64,000 nt of DNA from Prescottella defluvii (GTDB lineage Bacteria > Actinomycetota > Actinomycetes > Mycobacteriales > Mycobacteriaceae): contig NZ_JPOC01000007.1 of the NCBI RefSeq assembly GCF_000738775.1, positions 124,001 through 188,000 of the forward strand, in the 5' to 3' direction. The notes beneath the pieces were generated by a model. It saw nothing but the letters and a program-made list of their open reading frames with translations, was not told where the DNA came from and searched no databases. A program made the translations under genes and the position numbers. Positions 1 through 14,695 of the stretch are shown piece by piece; position 1 is the stretch's first letter, and each line of letters starts with the position of its first letter.

Positions 1-142
1 CTGCGGTACGGCAGTTCTGCGTCGGGAAGGAGCCGACGATACCTGCGGTGCAGGCGGCCGTGACGAGTTCCGGGCCGGAGACCAGGAACATCGGTGCCGC
101 GACGACGGGCAACCGCAGGGCGGTCGGAAATGAGGCGGTCAT
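1..142 (-). CDS. Nitronate monooxygenase (2-nitropropane dioxygenase family), N-terminal part only
   Basis: The reading frame runs off the left window edge, so only about 47 N-terminal residues are seen. The protein starts at ATG 142 and contains LRLPVVAAPMFLVSGPELV followed by GSFPTQNCRT, the typical first beta-strand and FMN-binding loop of NAD(P)H-dependent flavin oxidoreductases that oxidise alkyl nitronates. A purine-rich ribosome site (AAAGAGGA) lies just upstream of the ATG. It is 44 bp downstream of the acyl-CoA ligase on the same strand, so the two probably share a transcript. The family also includes enoyl reductase-like flavoproteins, so the true substrate is uncertain. Confidence 0.8.
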   Translation of the reverse strand, partial: MTASFPTALRLPVVAAPMFLVSGPELVTAACTAGIVGSFPTQNCRTA

Positions 143-186
143 GGAGTCCTCTTTCGGGATGTATCGGTGTAAGTGTGTGTGGGAGT

Positions 187-1746
187 TCACGACGAGGCTC
201 GAACGAGACCGTCGAGCAACTCGGCTGCAGCAGCCCGATCGACCTTCCCCAGCGCCGTCAACGGAAGACGGTCGACGCGATGCGCAGCCTTGGGGCGCTT
301 GTAGTCGGGCAACCGCGTGCGACTCTCCGCCAGCACGACGGCGTCGGCGACGCCTGTGTCCGCAGCCGAGGTGTACGCGGCGACGATACGTTGCCCCCAT
401 ACCTCGTCGGGCAGTCCGACGACGACGACATCGTCGACACCGGGGATTGCAGAGATCGCCTCCTCCACCTCACGTGGATAGACGTTGTAACCGCCGGTGA
501 TGATCATGTCCTTGCTGCGACCGGTCAGGTGGATGTAGCCGTCGGGGTCCCGGTAGCCGAGGTCACCCGAGAACAAGTGGCCGTCCACGTGACTCTTACC
601 CAGATCTGTTCGCGTACAAGCATTGTGATAGCCAGGGCTGACCGCGGGACCGGTGATCACGAGTTCGCCGATCTCCCCCTCGGGAACGGCCTCACCGAGA
701 GCACGGAAACCGAAGGCCGCCTCCGGACAGACGCGCCCGACCGAGCCGAGCAGGTCGGCCTTCTCGAGCACACCACGGCGGTGGTCCGCCACGGTCAGCA
801 CGGTCAGAGGCGGGATCGCCTCGACCATTCCGTAGTACTGCACGAGGTTGGGCGTGATGCGGTGGTACGCCTGCCGGACATGCTCGACCGGCATCGGTGC
901 ACCCGCATACGCGAGCATGCGCATTCGCCGCATCACCGACAGTCGGGCGTCGTCGAAGTCGAGCAGTCGCGCGATGACCGTGGGCACCAGTGCCGTGTGG
1001 GTCACGGCGTGCGCCTCGACGGCGTCGACGAGACCCGCCGGGCCGATGTGTTCCAGCAGCACCTGCCGCCCGCCCGCCTCGAGAAAGGGCAGTACGAACA
1101 GGCCGCTGGTGTGAATGACTGGCCCGGCGTGCAGGAACACCGGCGGCTCGGCGCCGTCGAGAGTACCTGCGAGCACGTGGTCCCGCATCGCGCTCAGCGA
1201 GGCCAGCCGGTTCGCATGGGTTCGCTGGGCACCCTTCGGGACTCCCGTGGTACCGGACGAATAGTGCAGCGCGCACAGCGAATCCGGGTCGGGTGTGGGA
1301 ATTTCGGCGCCCCGCACGGTACCGGCCGCCAACTCGTCCACCGACGGACCGGTCGACGATGCCCCGCCGACGGCGACCACGGTCGGCATGCTGGTCGCAG
1401 TGGCGAACTCGGCTGCACCCGCGAGCCGTAGATCGACGATCAGTGCCGCCGGTTCACAGTCCTGAACGACACGCTCCCAGTCCATCCTGCCCACGCGCGG
1501 ATTGAGCGAGACCCGAACGAATCCGCCGATCGCGAGCCCGAGATCGACCTCGACCGCAGCGGTGGAATTGCCGAGCAGGACCACGACGCGACTCCCGGCC
1601 GCGACGCCGAGATCGCGCAGGCCACCGGCCAGCGCATGCACCCGATCGGACAGTTCCGTGAACGTTCGAGTCCCGCAGCTGTCCTCGAGTGCGATCGCCG
1701 ACCCGTATCGATCTGCCGCGGTGCGAACCACGTCGGCTATCGACAT
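187..1746 (-). CDS. AMP-forming acyl-CoA ligase (FadD-like), 519 aa
   Basis: This is a member of the ANL adenylating superfamily; it activates a carboxylic acid to its acyl-AMP and then to the CoA thioester. The phosphate-binding loop SSGTTGVPKG is at about 163-172, the YGMVEA motif is in mid-protein, and the hinge region GDLGYRDPDGYIHLTGRSKDM is followed by the catalytic lysine in LTALGKVDR (about K501). The start is the ATG at 1746, preceded by GGAGGGAG; the longer open frame up to 1869 lacks a ribosome site and would overlap the divergent thiolase. It heads a leftward transcript with the nitronate monooxygenase. The small N-terminal domain is short, as in medium-chain or aryl acid ligases; the substrate cannot be read from sequence. 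Confidence 0.88.
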   Translation of the reverse strand: MSIADVVRTAADRYGSAIALEDSCGTRTFTELSDRVHALAGGLRDLGVAAGSRVVVLLGNSTAAVEVDLGLAIGGFVRVSLNPRVGRMDWERVVQDCEPAALIVDLRLAGAAEFATATSMPTVVAVGGASSTGPSVDELAAGTVRGAEIPTPDPDSLCALHYSSGTTGVPKGAQRTHANRLASLSAMRDHVLAGTLDGAEPPVFLHAGPVIHTSGLFVLPFLEAGGRQVLLEHIGPAGLVDAVEAHAVTHTALVPTVIARLLDFDDARLSVMRRMRMLAYAGAPMPVEHVRQAYHRITPNLVQYYGMVEAIPPLTVLTVADHRRGVLEKADLLGSVGRVCPEAAFGFRALGEAVPEGEIGELVITGPAVSPGYHNACTRTDLGKSHVDGHLFSGDLGYRDPDGYIHLTGRSKDMIITGGYNVYPREVEEAISAIPGVDDVVVVGLPDEVWGQRIVAAYTSAADTGVADAVVLAESRTRLPDYKRPKAAHRVDRLPLTALGKVDRAAAAELLDGLVRASS

Positions 1747-1763
1747 GAGACTCCCTCCATTCG

Positions 1764-1779
1764 CTACAGTTATTGAAGT
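1764..1779 (-). promoter_or_regulatory. Shared 16-bp element upstream of the leftward ligase operon
   Basis: On the minus strand this reads ACTTCAATAACTGTAG and lies 18 bp upstream of the ligase ATG. The same sequence, with one difference in 16, occurs at 4091-4106 upstream of the PaaN-like gene in the corresponding orientation. Two copies in front of two functionally related transcription units suggest an operator or activator site of one regulon, perhaps bound by the HxlR-type protein encoded between them. It is inferred from repetition only. Confidence 0.5.
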
Positions 1780-1836
1780 AGACAACGGCGGGCGGATTTC
1801 CGCAAGGGACCGCACCCCGACGCACAGGAGGAGCCC

Positions 1837-3030
1837 ATGACCCGACGCCCGTCCCCACCCGAGGGCCACATCCCGTGGGTGATCGACGCGGTCCGGACCC
1901 CGTTCGGCGCGGCCCGGGGAGCTCTCTCACACGTCCGGGCGGACGACCTGGCCGCGATTCCGATCGCCGACCTGGTCGGTAGGCATCCCACGCTCGATCC
2001 CGGCCGAATCGACGACGTCGTATGGGGAAATGCCAACGGTGCGGGCGAGGACAACCGCAACGTGGCCCGGATGGCGTTGCTGCTCGCGGGGCTTCCGCAC
2101 ACGATTCCGGGTGTGTCGGTCAACCGGCTGTGCGGCTCCGGCGCCGAAGCGGTGCTGTCCGCGGCCAGGCGCGTCGCCGTGGGTGACGCCGAGATCGCGA
2201 TCGCCGGCGGCTCGGAGAGCATGAGCCGCGCCCCGTACGTGCTTCCGCCGGTGGACACCGCGTTTCCCCGGGCGATGGAGCTGCTTCCCACCACCGTCGG
2301 GTGGCGCATGGCGAATCCCAGATTCCCCGCAGCCTGGGTCGAGACGCTCGGCAGGTCGGCAGAGTTGGTAGCGCAGCAGCTGGGCGTCGGCCGGGCCGAG
2401 CAGGACGAATGGGCACTCCGGTCCCATGAACTGGCGGGCCGGGCGTGGGCGGACGGCATCCACGACGGCTTCGTCGTGCCGCACCCGGACCTCGACCGCG
2501 ACGAACCGATCCGCGAGACCGACATCGCGACACTGTCCGCGCTGCGGCCGGCCTTTTCCGGTGGTGGCAGTGTCACCGCAGGGAACTCGTCCCCGATCAG
2601 CGACGGGGCAGTCGCGGCGTTGGTGGGCACCGGGGCCGTCGCCGACGAACTCGGTGTCGAGCCGCTCGGCCGGGTACTGACCTCGGCGGTCGTCGGCACG
2701 GAGCCTGACCAGTTCGCGCTGGCACCCGTCGCGGCGATCACGAAGGCCCTCGACCGCGCGGGTCTCGGACTCGCAGATGTTCGAGTCCTCGAACTCAACG
2801 AGGCGTTCGCCGCGGTAGTCCTGTCCTGCCTGCGTGAACTTCCCGGGATCCCGATGGATCGGGTCAATCCCTTCGGCGGCGCCATCGCACTGGGTCACCC
2901 TCTCGGAGCATCAGCCGCCCGGATGGTGATCGACTGCCTGCGTCATCTCCGCCGACTCGGCGGGGGAATCGGGGTCGCGGCCGCATGCATCGGCGTGGGC
3001 CAGGGCATCGCTATTGTGTTGGAGGCCTGA
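1837..3030 (+). CDS. Thiolase (acetyl-CoA acyltransferase), 397 aa, complete active site
   Basis: This thiolase-fold enzyme cleaves 3-ketoacyl-CoA to acetyl-CoA and a shortened acyl-CoA, as in beta-oxidation or the PcaF step. It has the nucleophile cysteine in NRLCGSG (C99), the histidine in ALGHPLGAS (H354), the second cysteine in CIGVGQG (C384), and the NEAFA loop. Length is normal for the family. The ATG at 1837 follows GGAGGAG. It is divergent from the acyl-CoA ligase across a 90-bp gap, and the HxlR regulator follows 52 bp downstream. Of the three thiolase-like genes in this island it is the one with every catalytic residue in place, so it is the best candidate for the main degradative thiolase. 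Confidence 0.9.
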   Translation: MTRRPSPPEGHIPWVIDAVRTPFGAARGALSHVRADDLAAIPIADLVGRHPTLDPGRIDDVVWGNANGAGEDNRNVARMALLLAGLPHTIPGVSVNRLCGSGAEAVLSAARRVAVGDAEIAIAGGSESMSRAPYVLPPVDTAFPRAMELLPTTVGWRMANPRFPAAWVETLGRSAELVAQQLGVGRAEQDEWALRSHELAGRAWADGIHDGFVVPHPDLDRDEPIRETDIATLSALRPAFSGGGSVTAGNSSPISDGAVAALVGTGAVADELGVEPLGRVLTSAVVGTEPDQFALAPVAAITKALDRAGLGLADVRVLELNEAFAAVVLSCLRELPGIPMDRVNPFGGAIALGHPLGASAARMVIDCLRHLRRLGGGIGVAAACIGVGQGIAIVLEA

Positions 3031-3082
3031 CAAGCGATCCGCAGTATGTGATCGTCGCGGGCAGTGGCGGAAGGTGAGCGAC

Positions 3083-4024
3083 ATGGCCGAATCCGAGGCC
3101 ACTACAGCTCAGAGCCCCGTCGCCCAAACCATCGATCTGCTCGGCGACCGGCTGACCCTTGCCATCCTGCGCGAGTCCTTCGTCGATCACGTGCGCCGCT
3201 TCAGCCAGTGGATCGACCGCACAGGCGCCCCACCAGCCATGCTGACGGCACGACTGAACGCGCTGGTGGAGGCCGGCTTGATGGAACGCCGGCCACAGCA
3301 GCACGGTGGTGACCGCCACGACTATCTCCTGACCGAACTCGGCATCGCGACGTGGGAGATTCTGGCCAGCGTCTGGGCCTGGCAGCGCGAGTGGTCCCCG
3401 GAGGGGCTCCTTCAACCCGAGTTGGTGCACCTCGACTGCGGCCACCGGGGACCACCGGCGATGATGTGCCGGCATTGCGACTGCGTCGTCGGCCCACGCG
3501 ACACGCAACTCGAACTGGACCCCGAATCGCTGGTCCTCGCGGCACGGAGCGGGCGGCGGCGATCGACCCGCAACGCCCCGTCGGTGAACCGGGTCGATCT
3601 GCAGTTCACCGAGGTCATGGAGGCTATCGGCGACCGGTGGAGCGCCCTCGTCACCGGCCTGGCGCTGTCCGGGATACGACGGTTCGGCGAGTTCCAGTCC
3701 ATCCTGAAGATCTCACCTACGACCCTCACCGAGCGACTGGTTCGGCTGTCCGAGGTGCAGATACTCACCCGGAGCGACGACGGCGGCGGTCGCGACTACG
3801 TACTGACCCCGCGCGGCCGAGGCCTGTTCCCGATCTTCGCGTTCATGTTGTCGTGGACACAGGTCGCGCATCCCGACGCGCTCCCGCTCGGCCCGAAGCT
3901 CCGCCACCGCGGTTGTGACTCCTGGCTGCTTCCGGCGCTGCGCTGCCGCGGGTGCGAGGCCCGACTGGAACGCACGTCCGTGCACTTCGAACCCTTCCCG
4001 TTCGGCGCTCAGCTCCCGCGCTAG
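3083..4024 (+). CDS. Tandem HxlR-type winged-helix regulator with zinc-ribbon-like linkers, 313 aa
   Basis: Two HxlR/MarR-like winged-helix domains sit on one chain. The first spans about residues 12-95 (QTIDLLGDRLTLAILRE onward). The second spans about 175-260 (EAIGDRWSALVTG, then TTLTERLVRLSEVQIL and the wing GGGRDYVLTPRG). Each is followed by a short cysteine-rich stretch: LDCGHRGPPAMMCRHCDC in the middle and CDSWLLPALRCRGCEARL at the C-terminus, both resembling small zinc ribbons. Typical HxlR proteins are about 110-150 aa dimers, so this looks like a fused pseudo-dimer. The ATG at 3083 has GGAAGGTGAG upstream; the open frame extends further up without a ribosome site. Its position between the two transcription units suggests it regulates them. 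Confidence 0.82.
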   Translation: MAESEATTAQSPVAQTIDLLGDRLTLAILRESFVDHVRRFSQWIDRTGAPPAMLTARLNALVEAGLMERRPQQHGGDRHDYLLTELGIATWEILASVWAWQREWSPEGLLQPELVHLDCGHRGPPAMMCRHCDCVVGPRDTQLELDPESLVLAARSGRRRSTRNAPSVNRVDLQFTEVMEAIGDRWSALVTGLALSGIRRFGEFQSILKISPTTLTERLVRLSEVQILTRSDDGGGRDYVLTPRGRGLFPIFAFMLSWTQVAHPDALPLGPKLRHRGCDSWLLPALRCRGCEARLERTSVHFEPFPFGAQLPR

Positions 4025-4090
4025 ACGCCACCCTCTCGTCGAGCGATACGGCCCTCCCGACCGTTGACAATTCACTCTGTGTCCTGGTTC

Positions 4091-4106
4091 ACTTCAATAA
4101 CAGTAG
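4091..4106 (+). promoter_or_regulatory. Second copy of the shared 16-bp element, upstream of the PaaN operon
   Basis: ACTTCAATAACAGTAG lies about 95 bp upstream of the PaaN-like start codon in a 177-bp gap. It matches the element at 1764-1779 (minus strand) at 15 of 16 positions. A TTGACA hexamer at 4064-4069 lies just upstream, but I could not find a well-spaced -10 box, so the promoter itself is not placed with certainty. Confidence 0.5.
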
Positions 4107-4201
4107 TCATTTCGTCGAAGCAGGCGGTTGCCCTCGCCTGAACGCTCCACCCGATGACTGACTGATCTCGCGCAAAACTGTTGATACAGGAACGAGTGCC
4201 C

Positions 4202-5863
4202 ATGTTCTTCGAAACCCACCTCGCACTGCTGCAGGCCGCGACCGAGGCCAACCGAACCCGCAGCGCGTGGACCGGATATGCGCCCATCACCCCGCCCGAC
4301 GCAGCACAGTCCGACGCTCTCCTTGGCGCCTATGACGGTGCCACCCTGACGCTTTCGTCTCCCACCGACTCCGTGATCACCGCAGATGAGGTCTCGCCGT
4401 TCACCGGGAAGGCGCTCAACGTCAGCTACAGCGCGCCGTCCGTGGACGAGGCGCTCGTGGGCGCGGCCGCCGCCGCGACCGCCCTCCGCGACGCCGGGGT
4501 CGAGCTGAGGGTCGGCGTGTGCCTCGAAGCACTGCATCGAATTCACCTCCGCGGCCAAGAGTTCGCAGCCGTCACCTCCCACACCACCGGGCAGAGCCTC
4601 AACATGGCCTGCAGCGGCAGCGGCACCAACGCGCTCGATCGCGGGTTGGAGGCGGTGGCGATGGCCTGGTCCGCCATGACTCGGGTCCCCGAACACGTCA
4701 CGTGGCAGCAAAGATTCGGGAAATCCGACGTGACCCTGCGGAAGCGATACCGCACTCGTCCGCTCGGCACCGCACTCGTCGTCGCCTGCGCCTCGTTCCC
4801 TGCCTGGAACGCCTACCCGGCGATCCTCGCCAACCTCGCGACGGGAAATCCGGTTCTCGTCAAGCCACACCCCCGCTCGGTGCTGGCGACTGCGCTGGCG
4901 GTCGGCATCATGCGCGAGGTGCTGACCGAGGCACAACTGCCGGCCGACGCCGTTCAGCTCGTCGTCGACACCGTGGACGTCCCGATCGCAGGACAACTGG
5001 CCACCAGCCCCGAAGTACGCATCGTCGACTTCACCGGCAGCCCCAAGTTCGGGTCGTGGCTGGAACGAAACGTCCCGAACACCTTGGTGTTCACCGAAAC
5101 CGCGGGTGTCAACACCGTCATCCTCGACTCCGTCTCCGATCTATCGGCCGCGATGCGCACACTCGCCGGAGGTCTCGCTCTCTTCAGCGGCCAGATGTGC
5201 ACGACACCGCAGAACATCTACATCCCGGATGCGGGTGTGCGCACTGACGAGGGAGTGATCGCCCGAGACGATGTCATCGAGGCCCTCCTCGCGGCCATCG
5301 ACGATCTCGCCGACGCGCCTCGCCGCGCCGGGGCGGTCTGCGGCGCACTGCAGTCCGATACGACCCTGCAATCGATCACGGCACTCGCCGACAACGCCGA
5401 GGCGAGCGGCACCCTGCTCCGCAGGCCGATTTCGTACAACCATCCGGACTACCCCCAGGCCCGATCGGTGACCCCGCTCGTCATCCGGGTCGATCCGCGG
5501 CAGGACGCGACACTTCCCGACGGCGAACAGTTCGGTCCGGTCGCGTTCCTGATCGATTGCGCCGACACCGCCTCGGCAGTGGAGCACGCGACCGCGAGTG
5601 TCCGCCGCCACGGTGCGATCAGCTCCTACCTCTACTGCACCGACGACGCCGTCGTCGACGCGGTGGCCGACGCCTACGCCGATGCCGGAGCCTCCCTGTC
5701 GGCGAATTTGGTGTCCTCGATGCCCATGCAGTTCGCGGCCGCCTACAGCGACTATCACGTCACCGGCCTCAACCCCGCCGGCAACGCGACCCTCACCGAC
5801 GAATCCTTCATCTCCGGGCGATTCCGCATCGTCCAGGACCGTCGCCAGATCGAAGGGCAGTGA
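4202..5863 (+). CDS. paaN: PaaN-like aldehyde dehydrogenase, 553 aa
   Basis: This belongs to the aldehyde dehydrogenase superfamily and resembles the PaaN group annotated in phenylacetate-type catabolic clusters. The Rossmann-type core carries VACASFPAWNAYPAILANL and a nucleotide-binding TGSPKFGSW segment (about 278-286). The catalytic cysteine is in FSGQMCTTPQN (about C333) and the general base glutamate in VFTETAGVN (about E299). It lacks the hydratase domain of PaaZ. The start is ATG 4202 with AGGAACGAG upstream; the TTG at 4181 is in frame but lacks a site. It leads a rightward operon: its stop is separated by two bases (TGA CC ATG) from the next thiolase. The aldehyde substrate is unknown; an aldehyde released by the dioxygenase downstream is a reasonable guess. 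Confidence 0.8.
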   Translation: MFFETHLALLQAATEANRTRSAWTGYAPITPPDAAQSDALLGAYDGATLTLSSPTDSVITADEVSPFTGKALNVSYSAPSVDEALVGAAAAATALRDAGVELRVGVCLEALHRIHLRGQEFAAVTSHTTGQSLNMACSGSGTNALDRGLEAVAMAWSAMTRVPEHVTWQQRFGKSDVTLRKRYRTRPLGTALVVACASFPAWNAYPAILANLATGNPVLVKPHPRSVLATALAVGIMREVLTEAQLPADAVQLVVDTVDVPIAGQLATSPEVRIVDFTGSPKFGSWLERNVPNTLVFTETAGVNTVILDSVSDLSAAMRTLAGGLALFSGQMCTTPQNIYIPDAGVRTDEGVIARDDVIEALLAAIDDLADAPRRAGAVCGALQSDTTLQSITALADNAEASGTLLRRPISYNHPDYPQARSVTPLVIRVDPRQDATLPDGEQFGPVAFLIDCADTASAVEHATASVRRHGAISSYLYCTDDAVVDAVADAYADAGASLSANLVSSMPMQFAAAYSDYHVTGLNPAGNATLTDESFISGRFRIVQDRRQIEGQ

Positions 5864-5865
5864 CC

Positions 5866-7062
5866 ATGTCCCAGTTCGCATCCGGCGTCTACGTCTACGA
5901 CGCGGTCCGCACCCCGAAGGGCCGCGTCCGGCGACAGGGCGGCACGCTAGCCGACGTACCCCCGCACGAACTTCTCGCGCAGTTGCTCTCGGCGCTGCAG
6001 GAACGCGGACTCTCCGCCGACGCGGTCGACGACGTCGTCGTCGGCACCAGCACGGCCGTCGGCGAACAGGGTGGCAACGTCGCCCGCGCCGGCGTGCTCT
6101 GGGCGGGCTGGCCGGACCGGGTCGGGGCCGGGGTCGTCTCGCGACTGTGCTGCTCCGGCCTGGACGCGATCGAGTCCGCCGCGGCCAAGGTCGCTTCCGG
6201 CATCGCCGACGTGGTCGTCGCCGGTGGCGTCGAGTCGATGTCGCGGGTACCGATGCTCTCGGACCGACCGGCCTTCGCCGTCGACGACGAGCTCGGCGAC
6301 CGCACGGGCTACGTCACCATCGGGGTGTCCGCGGATCTCACTGCGGCCGAATACGGGCTGACGCGAACGGATCTCGACACCTATGCGGTGACCTCACATC
6401 AGCGTGCCGCTGCGGCCCCACCGTCCGGGTCGGTGATCCCGGTCCGATCGGGTGCCACCACGATCCTCGCGTCGGACGAGGGGGCGCGGCCGGGCGTCAC
6501 CGTCGAGTCACTCGCCGAACTCGCCCCCCTCTTCGGGGAGGATCCGTCGTGGAGCAGGGTGGCGACACGTCTGCCCGCGGTCGGGCGTCCGGATGGCGGG
6601 CTGCACACCGCCGCCACCGCCCCGCAGATGGCGGACGGTGCCGCGCTGGCGGTGTTCGGATCCTCCGTCGTACGCGATCGGCTCGGTCGCGAGCCGATCG
6701 CGGAGGTGGTGGGCGTCGCGCAGGCGGCTGTGCGCTCGCCCCTGCTGACGGCATCCGTCGTCGCGGCGCGGCGTGCCCTTGCGAACGCGGGCATCACCGC
6801 CGCGCAACTCGACGTGATCGAGGCGAACGAGTCCTTCGCCGCGTCCGCCCTGGTGATGACCCGGGAACTGGGACTCGATCCGAACAAGGTCAATCCACTC
6901 GGCGGGTCACTCGCCACCGGCCACCCGCTGGGCGCCAGCGGTGGCGCCCTCCTCGTCAACGCCCTCGATCAACTCGCCCGCGTCGACGGCGAGTACGCCC
7001 TGGTGACCATCCCGGCCGCGCTCGGGCTCGGCGCCGCCGTCGTCGTCCGCAGACTCCGCTGA
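5866..7062 (+). CDS. Thiolase family protein with altered third active-site motif, 398 aa
   Basis: The thiolase fold is intact over its full length: YDAVRTPKG at the N-terminus, nucleophile loop SRLCCSGLD (C95), glycine-rich VVAGGVESMSR, NESFA loop, and the histidine in ATGHPLGAS (H353). The third motif, normally CIGGGxG with the proton-transferring cysteine, reads PAALGLG, so a proline sits where the cysteine should be (about residue 383). Classical thiolysis would be impaired. The protein may have a modified Claisen or decarbonylating role, or partner another subunit. It lies two bases after the PaaN-like gene and 33 bp before the second acyl-CoA ligase, clearly in one operon. Confidence 0.85.
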   Translation: MSQFASGVYVYDAVRTPKGRVRRQGGTLADVPPHELLAQLLSALQERGLSADAVDDVVVGTSTAVGEQGGNVARAGVLWAGWPDRVGAGVVSRLCCSGLDAIESAAAKVASGIADVVVAGGVESMSRVPMLSDRPAFAVDDELGDRTGYVTIGVSADLTAAEYGLTRTDLDTYAVTSHQRAAAAPPSGSVIPVRSGATTILASDEGARPGVTVESLAELAPLFGEDPSWSRVATRLPAVGRPDGGLHTAATAPQMADGAALAVFGSSVVRDRLGREPIAEVVGVAQAAVRSPLLTASVVAARRALANAGITAAQLDVIEANESFAASALVMTRELGLDPNKVNPLGGSLATGHPLGASGGALLVNALDQLARVDGEYALVTIPAALGLGAAVVVRRLR

Positions 7063-7095
7063 TCCCCCTTCCAGACCACTGCACGAAAGGACGCC

Positions 7096-8835
7096 ATGAC
7101 CGCCATCTCGGAAGGCAACGTCGCCAACCGTTTACGCCCGTGCCATCCCGACAGTCGTGTCGCCGACTACCTCGAAAATCGTTGGTGGTCGCCGCGCACC
7201 GTACTTGACCTCCTGGACGAGCAGATCCGGAGCCGCGGCGACGCCCCGGCAGTGACCGATCCGACCAACCTGCCCGCGCTGTGCGGAATCGAACCGGAGA
7301 CACTGACCTGGCAGGAACTCGGTGCACGCGTGGACGACCTCGCCGCCAAGCTGCACGAGTCCGGTATCGGTCCCGGCGATGTCGTCGCCGTGCTGATGCC
7401 CAACTCCGTCGCCCTGACGGCGACCTACTTCGCCCTGTGGCGTCTCGGAGCGATCGCGGCACCGATGCCGGCCTCGTACCGACGATTCGAACTGACCCGG
7501 ATCGTCGAATCCGCCTCGGCCGTAGCTGTTGTCACCGTCAACAGCTTCGGCGACCGGACGCCGTCCGACGAGGCACTCGGCCTGATCGGCGAGGCGCCCT
7601 CGCTGCGCACCGTGTTCACCTTCGGGCCCCCGGCGACAAATCGCGGCCGGCCCCTGGACGCGGCCCCCGCCACCGACGAATCGCTCGATGCCGTGCGGCG
7701 CGCGTACACGGCCCTGCCCCGGTCGGTGAACGACTGCATCACGATCTGCTGGACCAGTGGGACCGAGGCTGCACCCAAGGGCGTACCCCGTTGTCACGGT
7801 GACTGGATCGCGATCGGGCAGGCTGTTCAGGACGGTCTGGAGACCGACCCGGAGTCCGTCATGCTCAATCCGTTCCCGATGGTCAACATGGCCGGGTTCG
7901 CGACCTCGCTGCTGCCGTGGCTGCTCGGCGGCGGTCACGTGGTCCACCACCACCCACTGGACCTGGCGGTCTATCTCGATCAACTCCAGCGCTACCGCGT
8001 CACCCACACGAGCATGCCGCCCGCGATTCTCACGATGCTGTTGCAGCGCGAGGATCTTCGGGCCGCACACGACCTGTCCGCGCTCCGACGGGTGGGGTCG
8101 GGCGGCGCCCCGCTACCCCCCGGCGTGGTGCGTGACTGGCAGTACTCGCTCGGTGTCGAGGTGCTCAACTTCTTCGGTTCGAACGAGGGTGTGTGCCTGC
8201 TCGGCGCCCCGTCGGACACACCCGACCCGTTGATCCGTGCCGAATACCTGCCGAACTACGGCTCACCGGCGAAGTCGTGGGCCACCGAGGTGGCAGCGCG
8301 CACGTCGGCACGCCTCGTCGATCTGGCGACGGGCGAAGAGGTCACGACGGTCGGCGGACGCGGCGAACTCCGCCTGAAGGGACCGACGATCTTCGCCGGC
8401 TACCTCGAGGGAACCGCCCCGACGAGCCCGTTCGATGAGGACGGATACCTCTGCAGCGGAGACATATTCGAGCTTTGTGGCGACAACGGCGAGTACCTCA
8501 GGTTCGTCGACCGGAGCAAGGAGATCATCATCCGCGGCGGGATGAACATCGCTCCGGCCGAGATCGAGGGGATTCTCATCGACCACCCCGCGGTCGCCGA
8601 TGTGGCCATCGTCGGGTATCCCGACGACATTCTCGGTGAGAAGTGCTGTGCGGTCGTGGTGCCCAATGCCGGAGACGACGTCACACTCGAGGATCTCGTC
8701 GAGTTCCTGAGGGCCAAGGACGTCGCGTCGTTCAAGCTGCCGGAGCGGCTCGTGACGGTCGAACTACTCCCCCGGAACCCGGTCGGAAAGCTGCAGCGTC
8801 GCGACATTCGCGGCGAGGTCGCGAAGGTCGGCTGA
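7096..8835 (+). CDS. AMP-forming acyl-CoA ligase, 579 aa
   Basis: This is the second ANL-family ligase of the island. It has the phosphate loop WTSGTEAAPKG, the A5 motif NFFGSNEGV, the GDIFEL...FVDRSKEIIIRGGMN hinge region and the catalytic lysine in NPVGKLQRRD (about K565). It is longer at the N-terminus than the ligase at the left end and is not a recent duplicate of it. ATG 7096 follows GAAAGGA. Its stop is two bases before the thioesterase ATG. Two distinct ligases in one cluster suggest that two different acids are activated, for instance the starting acid and an acid formed after aldehyde oxidation. Confidence 0.88.
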   Translation: MTAISEGNVANRLRPCHPDSRVADYLENRWWSPRTVLDLLDEQIRSRGDAPAVTDPTNLPALCGIEPETLTWQELGARVDDLAAKLHESGIGPGDVVAVLMPNSVALTATYFALWRLGAIAAPMPASYRRFELTRIVESASAVAVVTVNSFGDRTPSDEALGLIGEAPSLRTVFTFGPPATNRGRPLDAAPATDESLDAVRRAYTALPRSVNDCITICWTSGTEAAPKGVPRCHGDWIAIGQAVQDGLETDPESVMLNPFPMVNMAGFATSLLPWLLGGGHVVHHHPLDLAVYLDQLQRYRVTHTSMPPAILTMLLQREDLRAAHDLSALRRVGSGGAPLPPGVVRDWQYSLGVEVLNFFGSNEGVCLLGAPSDTPDPLIRAEYLPNYGSPAKSWATEVAARTSARLVDLATGEEVTTVGGRGELRLKGPTIFAGYLEGTAPTSPFDEDGYLCSGDIFELCGDNGEYLRFVDRSKEIIIRGGMNIAPAEIEGILIDHPAVADVAIVGYPDDILGEKCCAVVVPNAGDDVTLEDLVEFLRAKDVASFKLPERLVTVELLPRNPVGKLQRRDIRGEVAKVG

Positions 8836-8837
8836 CC

Positions 8838-9365
8838 ATGGGATCGCCACATGTCGACAGCGCACCGGCCGGCACGCCACGGGAGACGCCGACCGGGTCC
8901 GCGGGACCCATCGCGGACAAGATGACCGCGATGCTCGAAGGGCGTTTTCCCGGCCTGGTCGGCATGCGAATCCTCGACGCATCGGCTACGGCGGCCACGG
9001 GCGAACTGACCGTTCGCGAAGAGTTGCTGGCGCCGAACGGCTACCTGCACGCGGCCACCGTCGTAGCCCTGGCCGACACGGTGTGCGGTGTCGGCGCACG
9101 GTTGGCGCTGCCCGCCGAGGCATCCGGATTCACCACACTCGAACTCAAGACCAACTACCTCGGCACCGCGCGGTCCGGGACGGTCACCGTGGTGGCGGCA
9201 CTCGTCCACCTCGGACGGCGCACCCAGGTGTGGGACGCCACGGTCCGTGACGACACCGGGCGGGCGATCGCCCTCTTCCGCTGCACTCAGATGGTGCTGT
9301 ACCAAACAGCACCGCAACAGCATTCATCGAAACGATCCGATCTCGACACCACCGAAGCGGAGTAG
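8838..9365 (+). CDS. Hotdog-fold thioesterase (PaaI/YbgC-like), 175 aa
   Basis: A single hotdog domain (about 35-160) has the helix segment NGYLHAATVVALADTVCGVGA and the strands LELKTNYLGTARSGTVTVVA, typical of PaaI-type acyl-CoA thioesterases that release CoA from stalled intermediates. The first 25 residues are low-complexity. The start at 8838 is set by tight coupling to the ligase (TGA CC ATG) and by the position of the domain; no stop codon blocks a longer frame, but that would overlap the ligase by 195 bases. It is followed after two bases by the dioxygenase gene. In PAA-type pathways such enzymes protect the CoA pool. Confidence 0.82.
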   Translation: MGSPHVDSAPAGTPRETPTGSAGPIADKMTAMLEGRFPGLVGMRILDASATAATGELTVREELLAPNGYLHAATVVALADTVCGVGARLALPAEASGFTTLELKTNYLGTARSGTVTVVAALVHLGRRTQVWDATVRDDTGRAIALFRCTQMVLYQTAPQQHSSKRSDLDTTEAE

Positions 9366-9367
9366 CC

Positions 9368-10849
9368 ATGACTACCACCCAGCCCGGTGCCGACGGCGGC
9401 CTCGTCGCCGTCGCGCGCCCGGTCGACACCACCGACGACAACCCGTACACCCTCGGAGTGTTCGCGCCGATCGCCGACGAACTGACCCTGGACGACCTCA
9501 CCGTCATCGGTGAGATCCCCAAGGATCTCAACGGCGTGTATCTCCGTAACGGCCCGAACCGCCAGTTCGAGGCTCCGGGCCGCTACCACATGTTCGACGG
9601 TGACGGCATGATCCATGCGGCCCACTTCGAGAACGGGAAGGTGCGCTACACCAACCGGTACGTCCGGACCAAGGCCTTCCAGGAGGAGTCCGAGGCCGGC
9701 CGCGCCCTGTGGACCGGACTCATGGAAAACCCGAAGGACAATCCGTGGGGCAACGGCCACGGCCTGGGAATCAAGGATTCCGGGAACACCGACGTCATCT
9801 ACCATCGCGGTGAGATCCTCGCGACCTGGTACCTGTGCGGCACGCCGTACAGCATCGACCCGTTGTCACTGGAAACGCTGGGCGCGCAGGACTTCCTGGG
9901 TACCTTCGCCGGTGACATGATGGCCCACCCGAAGGTCGACGAGGCCACCGGCGAACTGATCTGGTTCGACTACGGCCCCGACCAGGACTACCTGGGCTAC
10001 GGCATCATCGGCGCCGACGGCACGCAGACGCACCGCACGCAGATCGACCTGCCGGGTCCCCGACTCCCGCACGACATCGGGATCACCGAGAACTACTCCA
10101 TCCTGATGGACCTGCCGCTGGTGCAGGACCACGACGCACGCCGGGCCGGCAAGTACCGGATCTTCTACGACCAGGAGCTCCCCGCTCGGTTCGCCGTCGT
10201 CCCCCGCCACGGCAACGGCAGCGACGTGCGGTGGTTCGAGGTGAAGCCCTGCTACATCTACCACGTCGTCAACTCGTGGGAAGAGGGCGACGAGATCGTC
10301 ATGGACGTGTGCCGGGTCAAGAACCCCCAGCACCAGACGACGTTCGCCTCGCCGCTGTCGAACATGCTCGCGTACATGCGACTCGACGCACAGCTCTACC
10401 GGTACCGCCTCAACCTGCGCACCGGGGCGGCCGTCGAGTCCGCGCTCGACGACGCCAACATCGAGTTCCCGAGCGTGGATTCGCGGATCATGGGTCGCTC
10501 GCACCGGTACTCGTACAACATGAGCCTCGCCAACGAGCCGACACTGCTCTTCGACGGCATCGTGCGGTTCGACTCGCAGACCGGCGCCAAGGAGGAGCAC
10601 AAGTTCGGTTCCGGGCGTTGGGGTTCGGAGGCACCGTTCGCACCCCGCGACGGATCGACGGGCGAGACCGACGGCTACCTGGTGTGCTTCGTCAACGACG
10701 AAGCCGAGGACAAGGGCGAGATCAACATCTTCGACGCCGCGGATGTCGCCGCCGGACCCGTCGCCCGGGTCCTGCTGCCGCGCCGGGTGCCGTCCGGTTT
10801 CCACGCCACGTGGGTGCGCGCCGAGCAGCTGGCCGCGGCCGGCGCGTAG
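9368..10849 (+). CDS. Carotenoid oxygenase / lignostilbene dioxygenase family protein, 493 aa
   Basis: This is a seven-bladed beta-propeller non-haem Fe(II) dioxygenase of the RPE65/CCD family, which cleaves a conjugated C=C bond to two carbonyls. The N-terminal LNGVYLRNGPNRQFE and HMFDGDGMIHAAHF motifs are typical. The four iron-ligand histidines can be placed at about H187 (MAHPK), H235 (LPHDIG), H299 (YIYHVVN) and H479 (GFHATW). Bacterial members act on lignostilbenes, resveratrol, isoeugenol-like compounds or apocarotenoids. Here it sits in one operon with an aldehyde dehydrogenase, ligase and thiolases, so its aldehyde product is probably oxidised and shortened through CoA chemistry. Length is normal. 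Confidence 0.88.
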   Translation: MTTTQPGADGGLVAVARPVDTTDDNPYTLGVFAPIADELTLDDLTVIGEIPKDLNGVYLRNGPNRQFEAPGRYHMFDGDGMIHAAHFENGKVRYTNRYVRTKAFQEESEAGRALWTGLMENPKDNPWGNGHGLGIKDSGNTDVIYHRGEILATWYLCGTPYSIDPLSLETLGAQDFLGTFAGDMMAHPKVDEATGELIWFDYGPDQDYLGYGIIGADGTQTHRTQIDLPGPRLPHDIGITENYSILMDLPLVQDHDARRAGKYRIFYDQELPARFAVVPRHGNGSDVRWFEVKPCYIYHVVNSWEEGDEIVMDVCRVKNPQHQTTFASPLSNMLAYMRLDAQLYRYRLNLRTGAAVESALDDANIEFPSVDSRIMGRSHRYSYNMSLANEPTLLFDGIVRFDSQTGAKEEHKFGSGRWGSEAPFAPRDGSTGETDGYLVCFVNDEAEDKGEINIFDAADVAAGPVARVLLPRRVPSGFHATWVRAEQLAAAGA

Positions 10850-10858
10850 CGAGAGTGT

Positions 10859-10889
10859 GCCCTCGGCCCGCGCCGGACGGGCCGAGGGC
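10859..10889 (+). terminator. GC-rich hairpin inside the operon (partial terminator or processing site)
   Basis: A perfect 12-bp inverted repeat (GCCCTCGGCCCG and its complement) with a 7-base loop begins 10 bases after the dioxygenase stop. There is no clear T-run. It lies within a 74-bp gap before the third thiolase-like gene, so it could lower expression of that last gene or protect the upstream mRNA. Confidence 0.6.
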
Positions 10890-10923
10890 GCTACCCCTGC
10901 CAGACGACCACAAGGAGAAACAC

Positions 10924-12162
10924 ATGACCAATCCCGTCTACGTGCTGGGAGGCGCCCAGACCGACTTCGCCCGGAACTGGTCGAAGGAGGGGCTCGGCCT
11001 GGTCGACATGTTCGCCGAGACCGTGCCCGCAGCGTTGGCGGACGCGCGCGTCGACGACCTCGACGTCGGTGTCGTGCACGTGAGCAACCTGGCGGGAGAA
11101 CTCTTCGCCGGACAGGCCCAACTCGGTGGCATGGTGGTTGCGGCTGTACCGGGACTCGACGGGCTACCGAGCACGCGACACGAGGCGGCGTGCGCCTCCG
11201 GTAGCACTGCGGTGCTCGCCGCATGCGCGGATATCGAATCCGGTCGATACGACGTGGCACTGGTGGTCGGTGTCGAGCTGATGCGCAACGTGTCCGCCCA
11301 GACGGCCGCGGAGTACCTGGGTACCGCAGCATGGGCCGGGCGGGAGGCGCTGGGGGTGAAGTATCCGTGGCCCGCGCTCTTCGCCGACATCGCGCGGGAG
11401 TACGACCGGCGCTACGGCCTCGATCATGCGCATCTCGGGCGTTTCGCAGAGATTGCATTCGGCAACGGATCCCGCAACAGTCTTGCGCAGACACGGGATT
11501 GGGAGTTCCCGGCCGGCTCCTTCGACGTGAACGACGAAGTGAACCCCATCGTGGAGGGGATGCTGCGCAAGACCGACTGTGGACGTATCACCGACGGTGC
11601 CGCGGCCGTAGTGCTGGCGGGGCCGAACTTTGCACAGGCATGGGCACAGCGGACGGGAGCCGATCTCGACGGAGAAGCGACCATTGCAGGGTTCGGCCAC
11701 CGCACCGCGACCCTGCTGCTCGCGGACAAGATCGCCCAGAGCGCCGACCAGGACTACCTCTTCCCACACCTACGCGGAGCCGTCGAAGACGCCTACCGAC
11801 GCGCCGGGATAGCGGGCGTATCCGACCTGGACGTCGCCGAGATCCACGACTGCTTCACCATCAACGGTCTGGTCACCCTCGAGCACATCGGACTGGCAGA
11901 CCCGGGCAAGGGCGGCGAGGCGGTGATGGACGGCTCCATCGAACGCGGCGGACGACTACCGGTGAACCCCAGCGGCGGACTGCTGTCCCACGGGCACCCG
12001 GTCGGCGCCACCGGGATCCGGATGGTGCTCGACGCCGCACGGCAAGTCACCGGCCGAGCAGGAGACCATCAGGTCGACGACGCCCGACGCGCCCTCACCG
12101 TGAACATCGGTGGATCCTTCACGACGGCGGTGTCCACAGTCGTCATCCGAGGCACCCGGTGA
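10924..12162 (+). CDS. Thiolase-like protein of the SCP2/lipid-transfer type, 412 aa
   Basis: The thiolase fold is of the SCPx-like group. Visible motifs are the nucleophile loop EAACASGSTAV (C90), EIHDCFTINGL (H308-D309-C310), the histidine in SHGHPVGATG (H358), and a C-terminal NIGGSF in place of the usual CxG. In this subfamily the HDCF cysteine is thought to replace the missing C-terminal cysteine, so activity is possible; many relatives are annotated acetyl-CoA acetyltransferase. AAGGAG lies 6 bases upstream of ATG 10924. It is the last gene of the rightward operon and ends 24 bp before a strong terminator. It could act on bulky aromatic or branched 3-ketoacyl-CoA. Confidence 0.85.
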   Translation: MTNPVYVLGGAQTDFARNWSKEGLGLVDMFAETVPAALADARVDDLDVGVVHVSNLAGELFAGQAQLGGMVVAAVPGLDGLPSTRHEAACASGSTAVLAACADIESGRYDVALVVGVELMRNVSAQTAAEYLGTAAWAGREALGVKYPWPALFADIAREYDRRYGLDHAHLGRFAEIAFGNGSRNSLAQTRDWEFPAGSFDVNDEVNPIVEGMLRKTDCGRITDGAAAVVLAGPNFAQAWAQRTGADLDGEATIAGFGHRTATLLLADKIAQSADQDYLFPHLRGAVEDAYRRAGIAGVSDLDVAEIHDCFTINGLVTLEHIGLADPGKGGEAVMDGSIERGGRLPVNPSGGLLSHGHPVGATGIRMVLDAARQVTGRAGDHQVDDARRALTVNIGGSFTTAVSTVVIRGTR

Positions 12163-12186
12163 CCACCGTCAGGGCGACGTACATGT

Positions 12187-12237
12187 AGCTGAAGGGTCCC
12201 TTCGTGCGCTGTCAGCGCACGAAGGGACCCTTCAGCT
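12187..12237. terminator. Strong bidirectional terminator, nested palindrome
   Basis: A perfect 25-bp inverted repeat with one unpaired central base lies between two converging genes (thiolase, plus; UvrA-like, minus). Each arm itself contains the palindrome GAAGGGTCCCTTC, so alternative small hairpins are possible in addition to the full stem. Confidence 0.88.
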
Positions 12238-12304
12238 GATGCTGGCGACGATCCTGAGAAGCGAGGACGGGGTCGCCGAACTTCGAATTGTCCGTACGCC
12301 GCAG

Positions 12305-14695
<2,391 letters not shown>

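What the first reader, a model, noticed from the sequence alone, without database searches (positions are those of the whole stretch)
1..12162. Uncharacterised catabolic island joining a CCD-type dioxygenase to CoA-dependent chain shortening
Two divergent operons combine a carotenoid-oxygenase-family dioxygenase, PaaN-like aldehyde dehydrogenase, two unlike acyl-CoA ligases, three thiolase-fold proteins, a hotdog thioesterase and a flavin oxidoreductase around one regulator. Seen: tight TGACCATG junctions, intact iron-ligand histidines, intact ALDH and ligase residues. Inference: oxidative cleavage of a stilbene, phenylpropenoid or apocarotenoid gives an aldehyde, which is oxidised, CoA-activated and thiolysed. 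No acyl-CoA dehydrogenase or hydratase is in view, so the route is incomplete or unusual. I know of no described pathway with this set.
Basis: partly seen in the sequence, partly recalled or inferred. Interest (0 to 1): 0.78.

Follow-up and report, generated by a model that had tools for sequence, protein, structure and literature searches.

The report
Mobile dioxygenase–thiolase catabolic gene island
A movable block of ten bacterial genes, shared across actinobacteria and in looser form on proteobacterial plasmids, seems to cut a carbon-carbon double bond with an unusual iron enzyme and turn the pieces into fuel, but its food molecule is still unknown.

Summary
Window 187-12162 carries two divergent operons around a tandem HxlR regulator; the flavoenzyme gene is only entered at 1-142. 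The nine genes NMO-ACL1-THL1-HxlR-PaaN-like-THL2-ACL2-hotdog-CCD recur in 19 of 21 other genomes found with a CCD at least 80% identical. The set recurs rearranged in other Actinobacteria and reduced on Cupriavidus and Sphingopyxis plasmids. A 20-bp operator-like site lies before ACL1 and before PaaN and nowhere else in the genome; in a reshuffled relative both sites moved with those promoters. The block fills a gap that two congeners leave free of it. This loss marks one clade of 75 CCDs (SH-aLRT 99). The LSD lysine is gone too, so phenolic stilbenes are unlikely. PaaA/C is absent; a known abscisic-acid degrader has no CCD of this clade. I favour alkene cleavage of an unsaturated acid, then aldehyde oxidation, CoA activation and thiolysis, usually without dedicated acyl-CoA dehydrogenase or hydratase. 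Substrate and order of steps are inferred. One thiolase lacks its second cysteine. Ten searches of an open-licence library gave no paper on this set.

The parts
1..142 (-). N-terminal 47 residues of the FabK/nitronate-monooxygenase-like FMN enzyme (NMO); the rest lies left of the window (L004 17175-18143)
187..1746 (-). ACL1, AMP-forming acyl-CoA ligase, 519 aa
1764..1783 (+). operator-like site 1, CTACAGTTATTGAAGTAGAC
1837..3030 (+). THL1, thiolase nearest to 3-oxoadipyl-CoA thiolases (under their cut-offs), catalytic motifs intact
3083..4024 (+). tandem HxlR regulator, 313 aa
4087..4106 (-). operator-like site 2, CTACTGTTATTGAAGTGAAC
4202..5863 (+). PaaN-like aldehyde dehydrogenase, 553 aa; next best match in the genome is 30% over part of its length
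5866..7062 (+). THL2, thiolase-fold protein without the second cysteine
7096..8835 (+). ACL2, AMP-forming acyl-CoA ligase, 579 aa
8838..9365 (+). hotdog (4HBT) thioesterase-like protein
9368..10849 (+). CCD: carotenoid-oxygenase-family protein, four His intact, second-sphere Glu place is Tyr155
10924..12162 (+). THL3, SCP2/SCPx-type thiolase-like protein
12186..12238 (.). hairpin of 25 pairs (24 Watson-Crick, one G-U) with a 3-base loop at the right end of the island; -53.2 kcal/mol and z -9.9 for 12180-12250; no run of T follows, so terminator function is only a guess
1..12268 (.). part of the block inside the window; it runs from about 909 bases left of the window to about 12268, where homology to module-free sites resumes

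Best explanation
The locus is a moving, probably HxlR-controlled catabolic island built around a distinct subfamily of CCD. Most likely the CCD cuts an internal C=C of a soluble, unsaturated (probably carboxylated, non-phenolic) compound with O2 into two carbonyl fragments. The PaaN-like ALDH oxidises the aldehyde fragment to an acid. The two ligases make CoA thioesters. A fragment that already carries a beta-carbonyl is thiolysed by THL1/THL3, so the cut supplies the keto group that beta-oxidation would otherwise make. The FabK-like flavoenzyme handles a left-over double bond, and the hotdog protein frees stalled CoA. HxlR switches both operons through the two conserved sites. Shown here by computation: gene identities, co-conservation, shared sites, a block absent from the same site in congeners, the Glu-less CCD clade, the Cys-less THL2. 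Inferred: substrate class, order of steps, direction of movement, and the roles of THL2, the flavoenzyme and the regulator.
For: Nine genes in 12 of 12 relatives of the family sample with CCD 80% or more identical, five genera, 19 of 21 with the named genomes; rearranged sets in Actinomadura, Arthrobacter, Agromyces, Microtetraspora. Within 10 kb in 71 Glu-less loci: any thiolase 64, ligase 51, HxlR 63. Two operator-like sites, the only ones in 5.13 Mb at up to 3 mismatches, reversed-pattern control 1; 17 of 18 near relatives scanned have both, and in reshuffled L059 both lie between ACL1 and PaaN. Between YCII and UvrA genes the block is absent in G130 and G142. Plasmid records annotate a porin, MFS and tripartite-tricarboxylate binding proteins beside the Cupriavidus versions; the MFS is nearest to metabolite/H+ symporters, under cut-off. 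LSD Lys-134 is absent.
Against: No substrate, no expression data, no structure (the prediction service was full). 7 of 71 loci have no thiolase and 20 no ligase within 10 kb by my cut-offs, though some contigs end early. One place (L151) has no module gene, and L085 (83% over 215 residues, left out of the table for length) has none either. Acyl-CoA dehydrogenase or hydratase relatives lie near in 14 of 71, and others elsewhere in the genome were not counted. The four best PDB matches are carotenoid 9,10-dioxygenase (three) and 9-cis-epoxycarotenoid dioxygenase, which would fit an apocarotenoid as well. Four distant rearranged loci show no convincing operator-like site. The transporter argument rests on proteobacterial plasmids, not on this genome.
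Confidence: 0.5

Rival explanations
1. Phenolic stilbene or phenylpropenoid catabolism: the CCD is a lignostilbene-type dioxygenase and the aromatic aldehyde goes to an acid and CoA ester.
For: CCD family match and lignostilbene equivalog hits under cut-off; LsdA 4.9e-57; an aldehyde and an alcohol dehydrogenase gene lie about 6-9 kb beyond NMO in this genome (L004 8620-11247).
Against: LSD Lys-134 and Glu-135 (PMC8191317, passages) align to Trp154 and Tyr155; at these places the 75 readable subfamily places have Trp/Phe/Met and Tyr/Trp/Ser, never Lys or Glu. The two lignostilbene models score 263.6 and 232 against cut-offs of 800 and 650. The two upstream dehydrogenases have no close relative in the 19 kb beyond NMO in 9 of 9 near relatives fetched (only 35% and 38% paralogues in two).
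Confidence: 0.12
2. Apocarotenoid or isoprenoid catabolism: the CCD cuts an exogenous apocarotenoid, ionone-like or polyprenyl compound, and the thiolases shorten the rest.
For: Nearest PDB sequences are carotenoid 9,10-dioxygenase (1.7e-89) and 9-cis-epoxycarotenoid dioxygenase 1 (4e-66); the best NCBIfam hit is the 13,14-cleaving apocarotenoid enzyme, 303.3 of 675 bits needed.
Against: Under the equivalog cut-off. G298, which by its contig length of 5,868,661 bp is the abscisic-acid degrader Rhodococcus sp. P1Y, shows one CCD, of the Glu type, so abscisic acid in particular is not supported. Porin and carrier genes in the Cupriavidus versions suit a soluble acid better.
Confidence: 0.22
3. 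Turnover of the cell's own carotenoid pigment.
For: The genome has one phytoene/squalene-synthase family gene.
Against: That gene is on contig C9, 28 kb from the other, Glu-type CCD of the genome, not near the island. The island is patchy: CCD 80% or more identical in 6 of 14 genomes of the genus, this one included, and it carries its own regulator and ligases.
Confidence: 0.05
4. A phenylacetate-type CoA pathway for which the CCD is incidental.
For: PaaN-like ALDH, PcaF-like THL1 and PaaI-like hotdog, all under cut-off for those names.
Against: No PaaA/PaaC gene (PF05138) found in the genome, while the control search rang in 4 of 14 genomes; PaaN_2 under cut-off; the CCD is the best conserved member in L066, L067, L069 and L074, e.g. 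76% against 45-62% in L067.
Confidence: 0.03

Closest known systems
Carotenoid cleavage dioxygenase family (RPE65, PF03055)
   Same: Whole-length match, four His ligands, the Thr that aligns with LSD4 Thr-121 (T141) invariant in alignment A2
   Different: Second-sphere Glu-135 (LSD4 numbering) is Tyr; in 75 readable places of the subfamily Tyr 60, Trp 10, Ser 5
Lignostilbene dioxygenases (LSD4, LsdA)
   Same: 196.6 bits to LsdA, same iron ligands
   Different: No Lys-134, no Glu-135; equivalog scores under cut-off
M. tuberculosis Rv0913c, the second CCD named in a review (PMC5133782, passages)
   Same: By recall it sits beside the SCPx-like Rv0914c, as CCD-THL3 pairs do in L132/L133; its sequence was not seen here
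   Different: The passages seen give no activity for it; L132/L133 show no PaaN, ACL1, THL1 or hotdog genes
Phenylacetate (Paa) lower pathway
   Same: PaaN-like ALDH, PcaF-like thiolase, PaaI-like hotdog, all under the named cut-offs
   Different: No PaaA/C found; ALDH under the PaaN_2 cut-off

Membership tests
CCD family (PF03055) | full-length profile match over the curated cut-off | tested here: met
   454.7 bits, cut-off 27
CCD family (PF03055) | four iron-ligand His | tested here: met
   H187, H235, H299, H479
CCD family (PF03055) | three second-sphere Glu/Asp (as stated in PMC12051055 and PMC8191317, passages) | tested here: not met
   two of three kept (E366, E421); the Glu-135 place is Tyr155
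CCD family (PF03055) | family fold | not tested
   structure service full
Lignostilbene dioxygenase | Lys-134 that binds the 4-hydroxyl group | tested here: not met
   Trp154 at that place
Lignostilbene dioxygenase | NCBIfam equivalog score | tested here: not met
   263.6 of 800; 232 of 650
8'-apo-carotenoid 13,14-cleaving dioxygenase | NCBIfam equivalog score | tested here: not met
   303.3 of 675
Phenylacetate pathway | PaaA/PaaC epoxidase subunits in the genome | tested here: not met
   0 matches
Phenylacetate pathway | PaaN_2 equivalog score | tested here: not met
   534.4 of 578.75
Thiolase (THL2) | nucleophile Cys, His, and second Cys (roles recalled) | tested here: not met
   Cys and His kept, second Cys lost (TIPAALGLG against TLCIGGGMG of 3svk)
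Abscisic-acid catabolism | module CCD present in a reported degrader | tested here: not met
   G298, P1Y by length, has one CCD match, Glu type
Carotenoid or stilbene cleavage | enzyme activity | not testable with these tools
   -

The most novel reading that the evidence does not exclude
A whole CCD clade without the Glu-135 carboxylate has left carotenoids and stilbenes and works as the entry enzyme of an alkene-cleavage route for small unsaturated acids: the oxygenase makes the beta-carbonyl directly, so ligase and thiolase finish chain shortening without the three middle steps of beta-oxidation, while THL2, without its second cysteine, does a new acyl-transfer or retro-Claisen step. The route spread across two phyla, on islands and plasmids.
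Probability: 0.2. Interest if true: 0.82.

Novelty: new variant of a known kind. Interest (0 to 1): 0.6.

Why it matters
It gives a genetic address, a regulator, two operator-like sites and a mobile unit for a catabolic route that ten paper searches did not find described. It exposes a CCD clade that lacks one of three acids said to be conserved in the family, which makes the role of that acid testable with natural variants. The second CCD of M. tuberculosis may belong to the same clade (recalled neighbourhood, not tested).

Tried and rejected
Abscisic acid was my favoured substrate for a time (abscisic acid to dehydrovomifoliol would need a C2=C3 cut); dropped because the degrader P1Y, recognised by its length, has one CCD match and that is Glu-type. 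Standard phenylacetate pathway: rejected. Phenolic stilbenes: disfavoured. Own pigment turnover: disfavoured. The aldehyde/alcohol dehydrogenase pair upstream (L004 8620-11247) as module members: rejected; the first fetch reached only about 4 kb beyond NMO, so I fetched 19 kb beyond it in 9 of the 12 near relatives and found no close relative. A first CCD alignment was worthless because minus-strand loci were not turned; it was replaced. Papers: ten searches seen as listings; PMC4263727 passages (a mycobacterial island, no link seen), PMC7996341 outline, passages and discussion, PMC5133782, PMC12051055, PMC6060882 and PMC8191317 passages, PMC6460035 whole text. The library holds open-licence papers only.

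Limits: the CCD table is not a random sample. It holds all loci that pass, plus 17 window-type or 53% loci, 20 loci of 43-47% and 20 loci of 32-38% that I picked from the capped list, and six plasmid loci. The Fisher values treat related loci as independent, and the tree shows the Glu-less state as one side of one branch, so they measure consistency, not repeated events. 29 of 76 Glu-less and 24 of 56 Glu places have under 8 kb on a side; with 8 kb or more on both sides 43 of 47 Glu-less places have two or more module genes, and 1 of 32 Glu places has one. Rows dropped before the table: eight loci that repeat a genome already fetched (L053, L054, L056, L059, L061, L062, L082, L083), L052, and CCD hits of 280 aligned residues or fewer (among them L085, L116 and a second hit in L066). 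Classes were set by identity (40% or more) and checked by motif: one disagreement (L163, an alignment gap; it has Glu), and L046 has no readable motif. In L150, L151 and L153 a Glu stands a few residues further on, so Ser there depends on the alignment. The tree left out L046, rows under 380 residues and identical rows (130 rows); it is a quick tree with long branches.
Full report
What is there. The window is G000:C7:124001-188000 of a 5.13-Mb genome in 265 contigs. Gene calls and family scans give, from left to right: a FabK/nitronate-monooxygenase-like FMN enzyme (NMO, only 1-142 in the window), ACL1, then on the + strand THL1, tandem HxlR, PaaN-like ALDH, THL2, ACL2, hotdog protein, CCD and SCPx-type THL3.

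It is a module. A CCD search of 301 genomes of the family, this one included, found CCDs 80% or more identical in 12 other genomes of five genera. All 12 carry all nine genes from NMO to CCD; one copy (L046) is broken into many frames, and two (L041, L044) are rearranged, with an HxlR of 50%. THL3 lies next to the CCD in 4 of the 12 within the stretch fetched. In genome contigs, 64 loci were found. Counting both searches and each genome once, 21 other genomes have a CCD (or piece) at least 80% identical and 19 have all nine genes; Actinomadura L066 has LLM in place of NMO, and MAG L085 has a 215-residue CCD stretch and no module gene in its 20.6-kb locus. Distant carriers (Actinomadura, Arthrobacter, Agromyces, Microtetraspora; CCD 64-81%) keep ACL1, ACL2, THL1, THL2 or its 40% relative, THL3, hotdog, PaaN-like and HxlR in new orders. 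Four of six Amycolatopsis loci have HxlR, CCD, ACL2 and THL3; the other two only HxlR and LLM.

Other phylum. On plasmids, Cupriavidus L150 and L153 carry NMO, ligase, thiolase and HxlR relatives with the CCD; Cupriavidus L149 and L154 carry two CCDs with a ligase and THL3 and no NMO hit; Sphingopyxis L152 carries ligase, NMO, thiolase and CCD. L150, L152 and L153 also have, as annotated, MFS, SDR, another ALDH and alpha/beta hydrolases, and L150/L153 a porin and tripartite-tricarboxylate binding proteins. In one search the L150 MFS is nearest to metabolite/H+ symporters, the ALDHs to HpaE and the L150 hydrolase to PcaD types, all under cut-off. Polaromonas L151 has none of the searched module genes within 10 kb.

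A marker of the subfamily. [quoted passage not shown] PMC12051055 and PMC6060882 (passages) speak of three conserved or highly conserved second-sphere acids. In the window CCD the Glu-135 place is Tyr155 and the LSD Lys-134 place is Trp154 (alignment to LsdA). In a table of 132 CCD places, 76 are Glu-less (75 readable: Tyr 60, Trp 10, Ser 5) and 56 keep Glu or Asp. Of the 76, 75 have at least one module gene within 10 kb and 72 at least two; of the 56, one and none. A tree of 130 rows puts the 75 Glu-less rows on one side of a branch with SH-aLRT 99. So this is one clade with a fixed change and a habit of sitting in such loci; it is one origin, not many independent ones.

Parts that vary. Among 71 Glu-less loci: HxlR 63, ligase 51, any thiolase 64, NMO 31, luciferase-like TIM barrel (LLM, named by eye) 20, both flavoenzymes 0, neither 20. 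NMO and LLM share no locus here, which suggests that one can stand in for the other (inference; p 6e-7 without correction for kinship). THL2 lacks the second cysteine in every copy of over 350 aligned residues and 56% or more identity (IPAALG, IPGGLG or a close variant), as does its 38-42% relative (VSGAAG), while 3svk has LCIGGG. Relatives of one hydratase and three acyl-CoA dehydrogenase queries lie within 10 kb in 14 of 71 loci, so these enzymes are not part of the usual module.

Regulation. CTACWGTTATTGAAGTRVAC occurs before ACL1 (1764-1783) and before PaaN (4087-4106), and nowhere else in the genome at up to 3 mismatches; the reversed control pattern has one hit. I scanned 18 near relatives at up to 4 mismatches: 17 have both sites and one (L061) has only one. 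In L059 the genes are reshuffled so that ACL1 and PaaN face each other, and both sites lie between them, having moved with those promoters. Four distant rearranged loci (L066, L067, L069, L080) show no convincing site. That HxlR binds the site is inferred.

Mobility. YCII and UvrA genes flank the block. In G130 and G142 these genes are near each other without the block between them, though the gap in G142 holds about 4.4 kb of other DNA and UvrA is inverted in G130; homology to this genome stops at about window -909 and resumes at about 12268. G142 carries its own module about 21 kb beyond UvrA, and three other congeners carry it beside rimP/nusA-like genes (labels by eye). A 25-pair hairpin ends the block. 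Gain here rather than loss there is inferred from this scatter.

Function. I read the set as alkene cleavage followed by aldehyde oxidation, CoA ligation and thiolysis. The attractive point is that a C=C cut can create the beta-carbonyl that a thiolase needs, which would explain thiolases without dehydrogenase and hydratase. The substrate is open. Phenolic stilbenes are disfavoured by the lost Lys; abscisic acid by its absence in P1Y; phenylacetate by the missing PaaA/C; pigment turnover by the other CCD near a phytoene/squalene-synthase family gene. The porin and carrier genes of the Cupriavidus versions point to a soluble acid. No structure could be predicted.

Noticed in passing
L004 8620-10083 and 10138-11247 (about 6-9 kb beyond NMO): An aldehyde dehydrogenase and a zinc-type alcohol dehydrogenase, by eye like aryl aldehyde/alcohol enzymes; not scanned against families; no close relative within 19 kb beyond NMO in 9 of 9 relatives fetched.
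   Followed up: partly
window 5866-7062 and relatives: A thiolase-fold family (THL2) without the second Cys in every long copy compared; its chemistry is unknown.
   Followed up: partly
L117-L136 and L063 12584-14136: A second architecture: a 43-46% CCD with, in most, THL3 and HxlR, often THL2 and ACL2; in L063 it sits directly beside the window-type module.
   Followed up: partly
L047-L051, L066, L073, L075, L080 and others: Luciferase-like TIM-barrel protein in 20 loci, none of which has the FabK-like gene within 10 kb.
   Followed up: partly
L069 15764-18842, also L067 and L074: Phosphotransferase-like, acyl-CoA-dehydrogenase-like and short-chain-dehydrogenase-sized genes follow the module in Agromyces and Arthrobacter, reminiscent of ACAD10/11 sets (recalled).
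   Followed up: no
L046 / L082 (Prescottella defluvii CP121458): The module is broken into many frames; the assembly is rated 79% complete, so sequencing errors are likely.
   Followed up: no
window 3083-4024: Each HxlR half is followed by a CxxC-rich stretch (CRHC, CRGC), which may bind metal.
   Followed up: no
G000 C9 7654-9105 and 36819-37607: A Glu-type CCD on the same contig as a phytoene/squalene-synthase family gene, a better candidate for pigment turnover.
   Followed up: partly
window 12305-14695: UvrA-like protein; the DNA is 88-91% identical in G130 and G142; unrelated to the island.
   Followed up: partly
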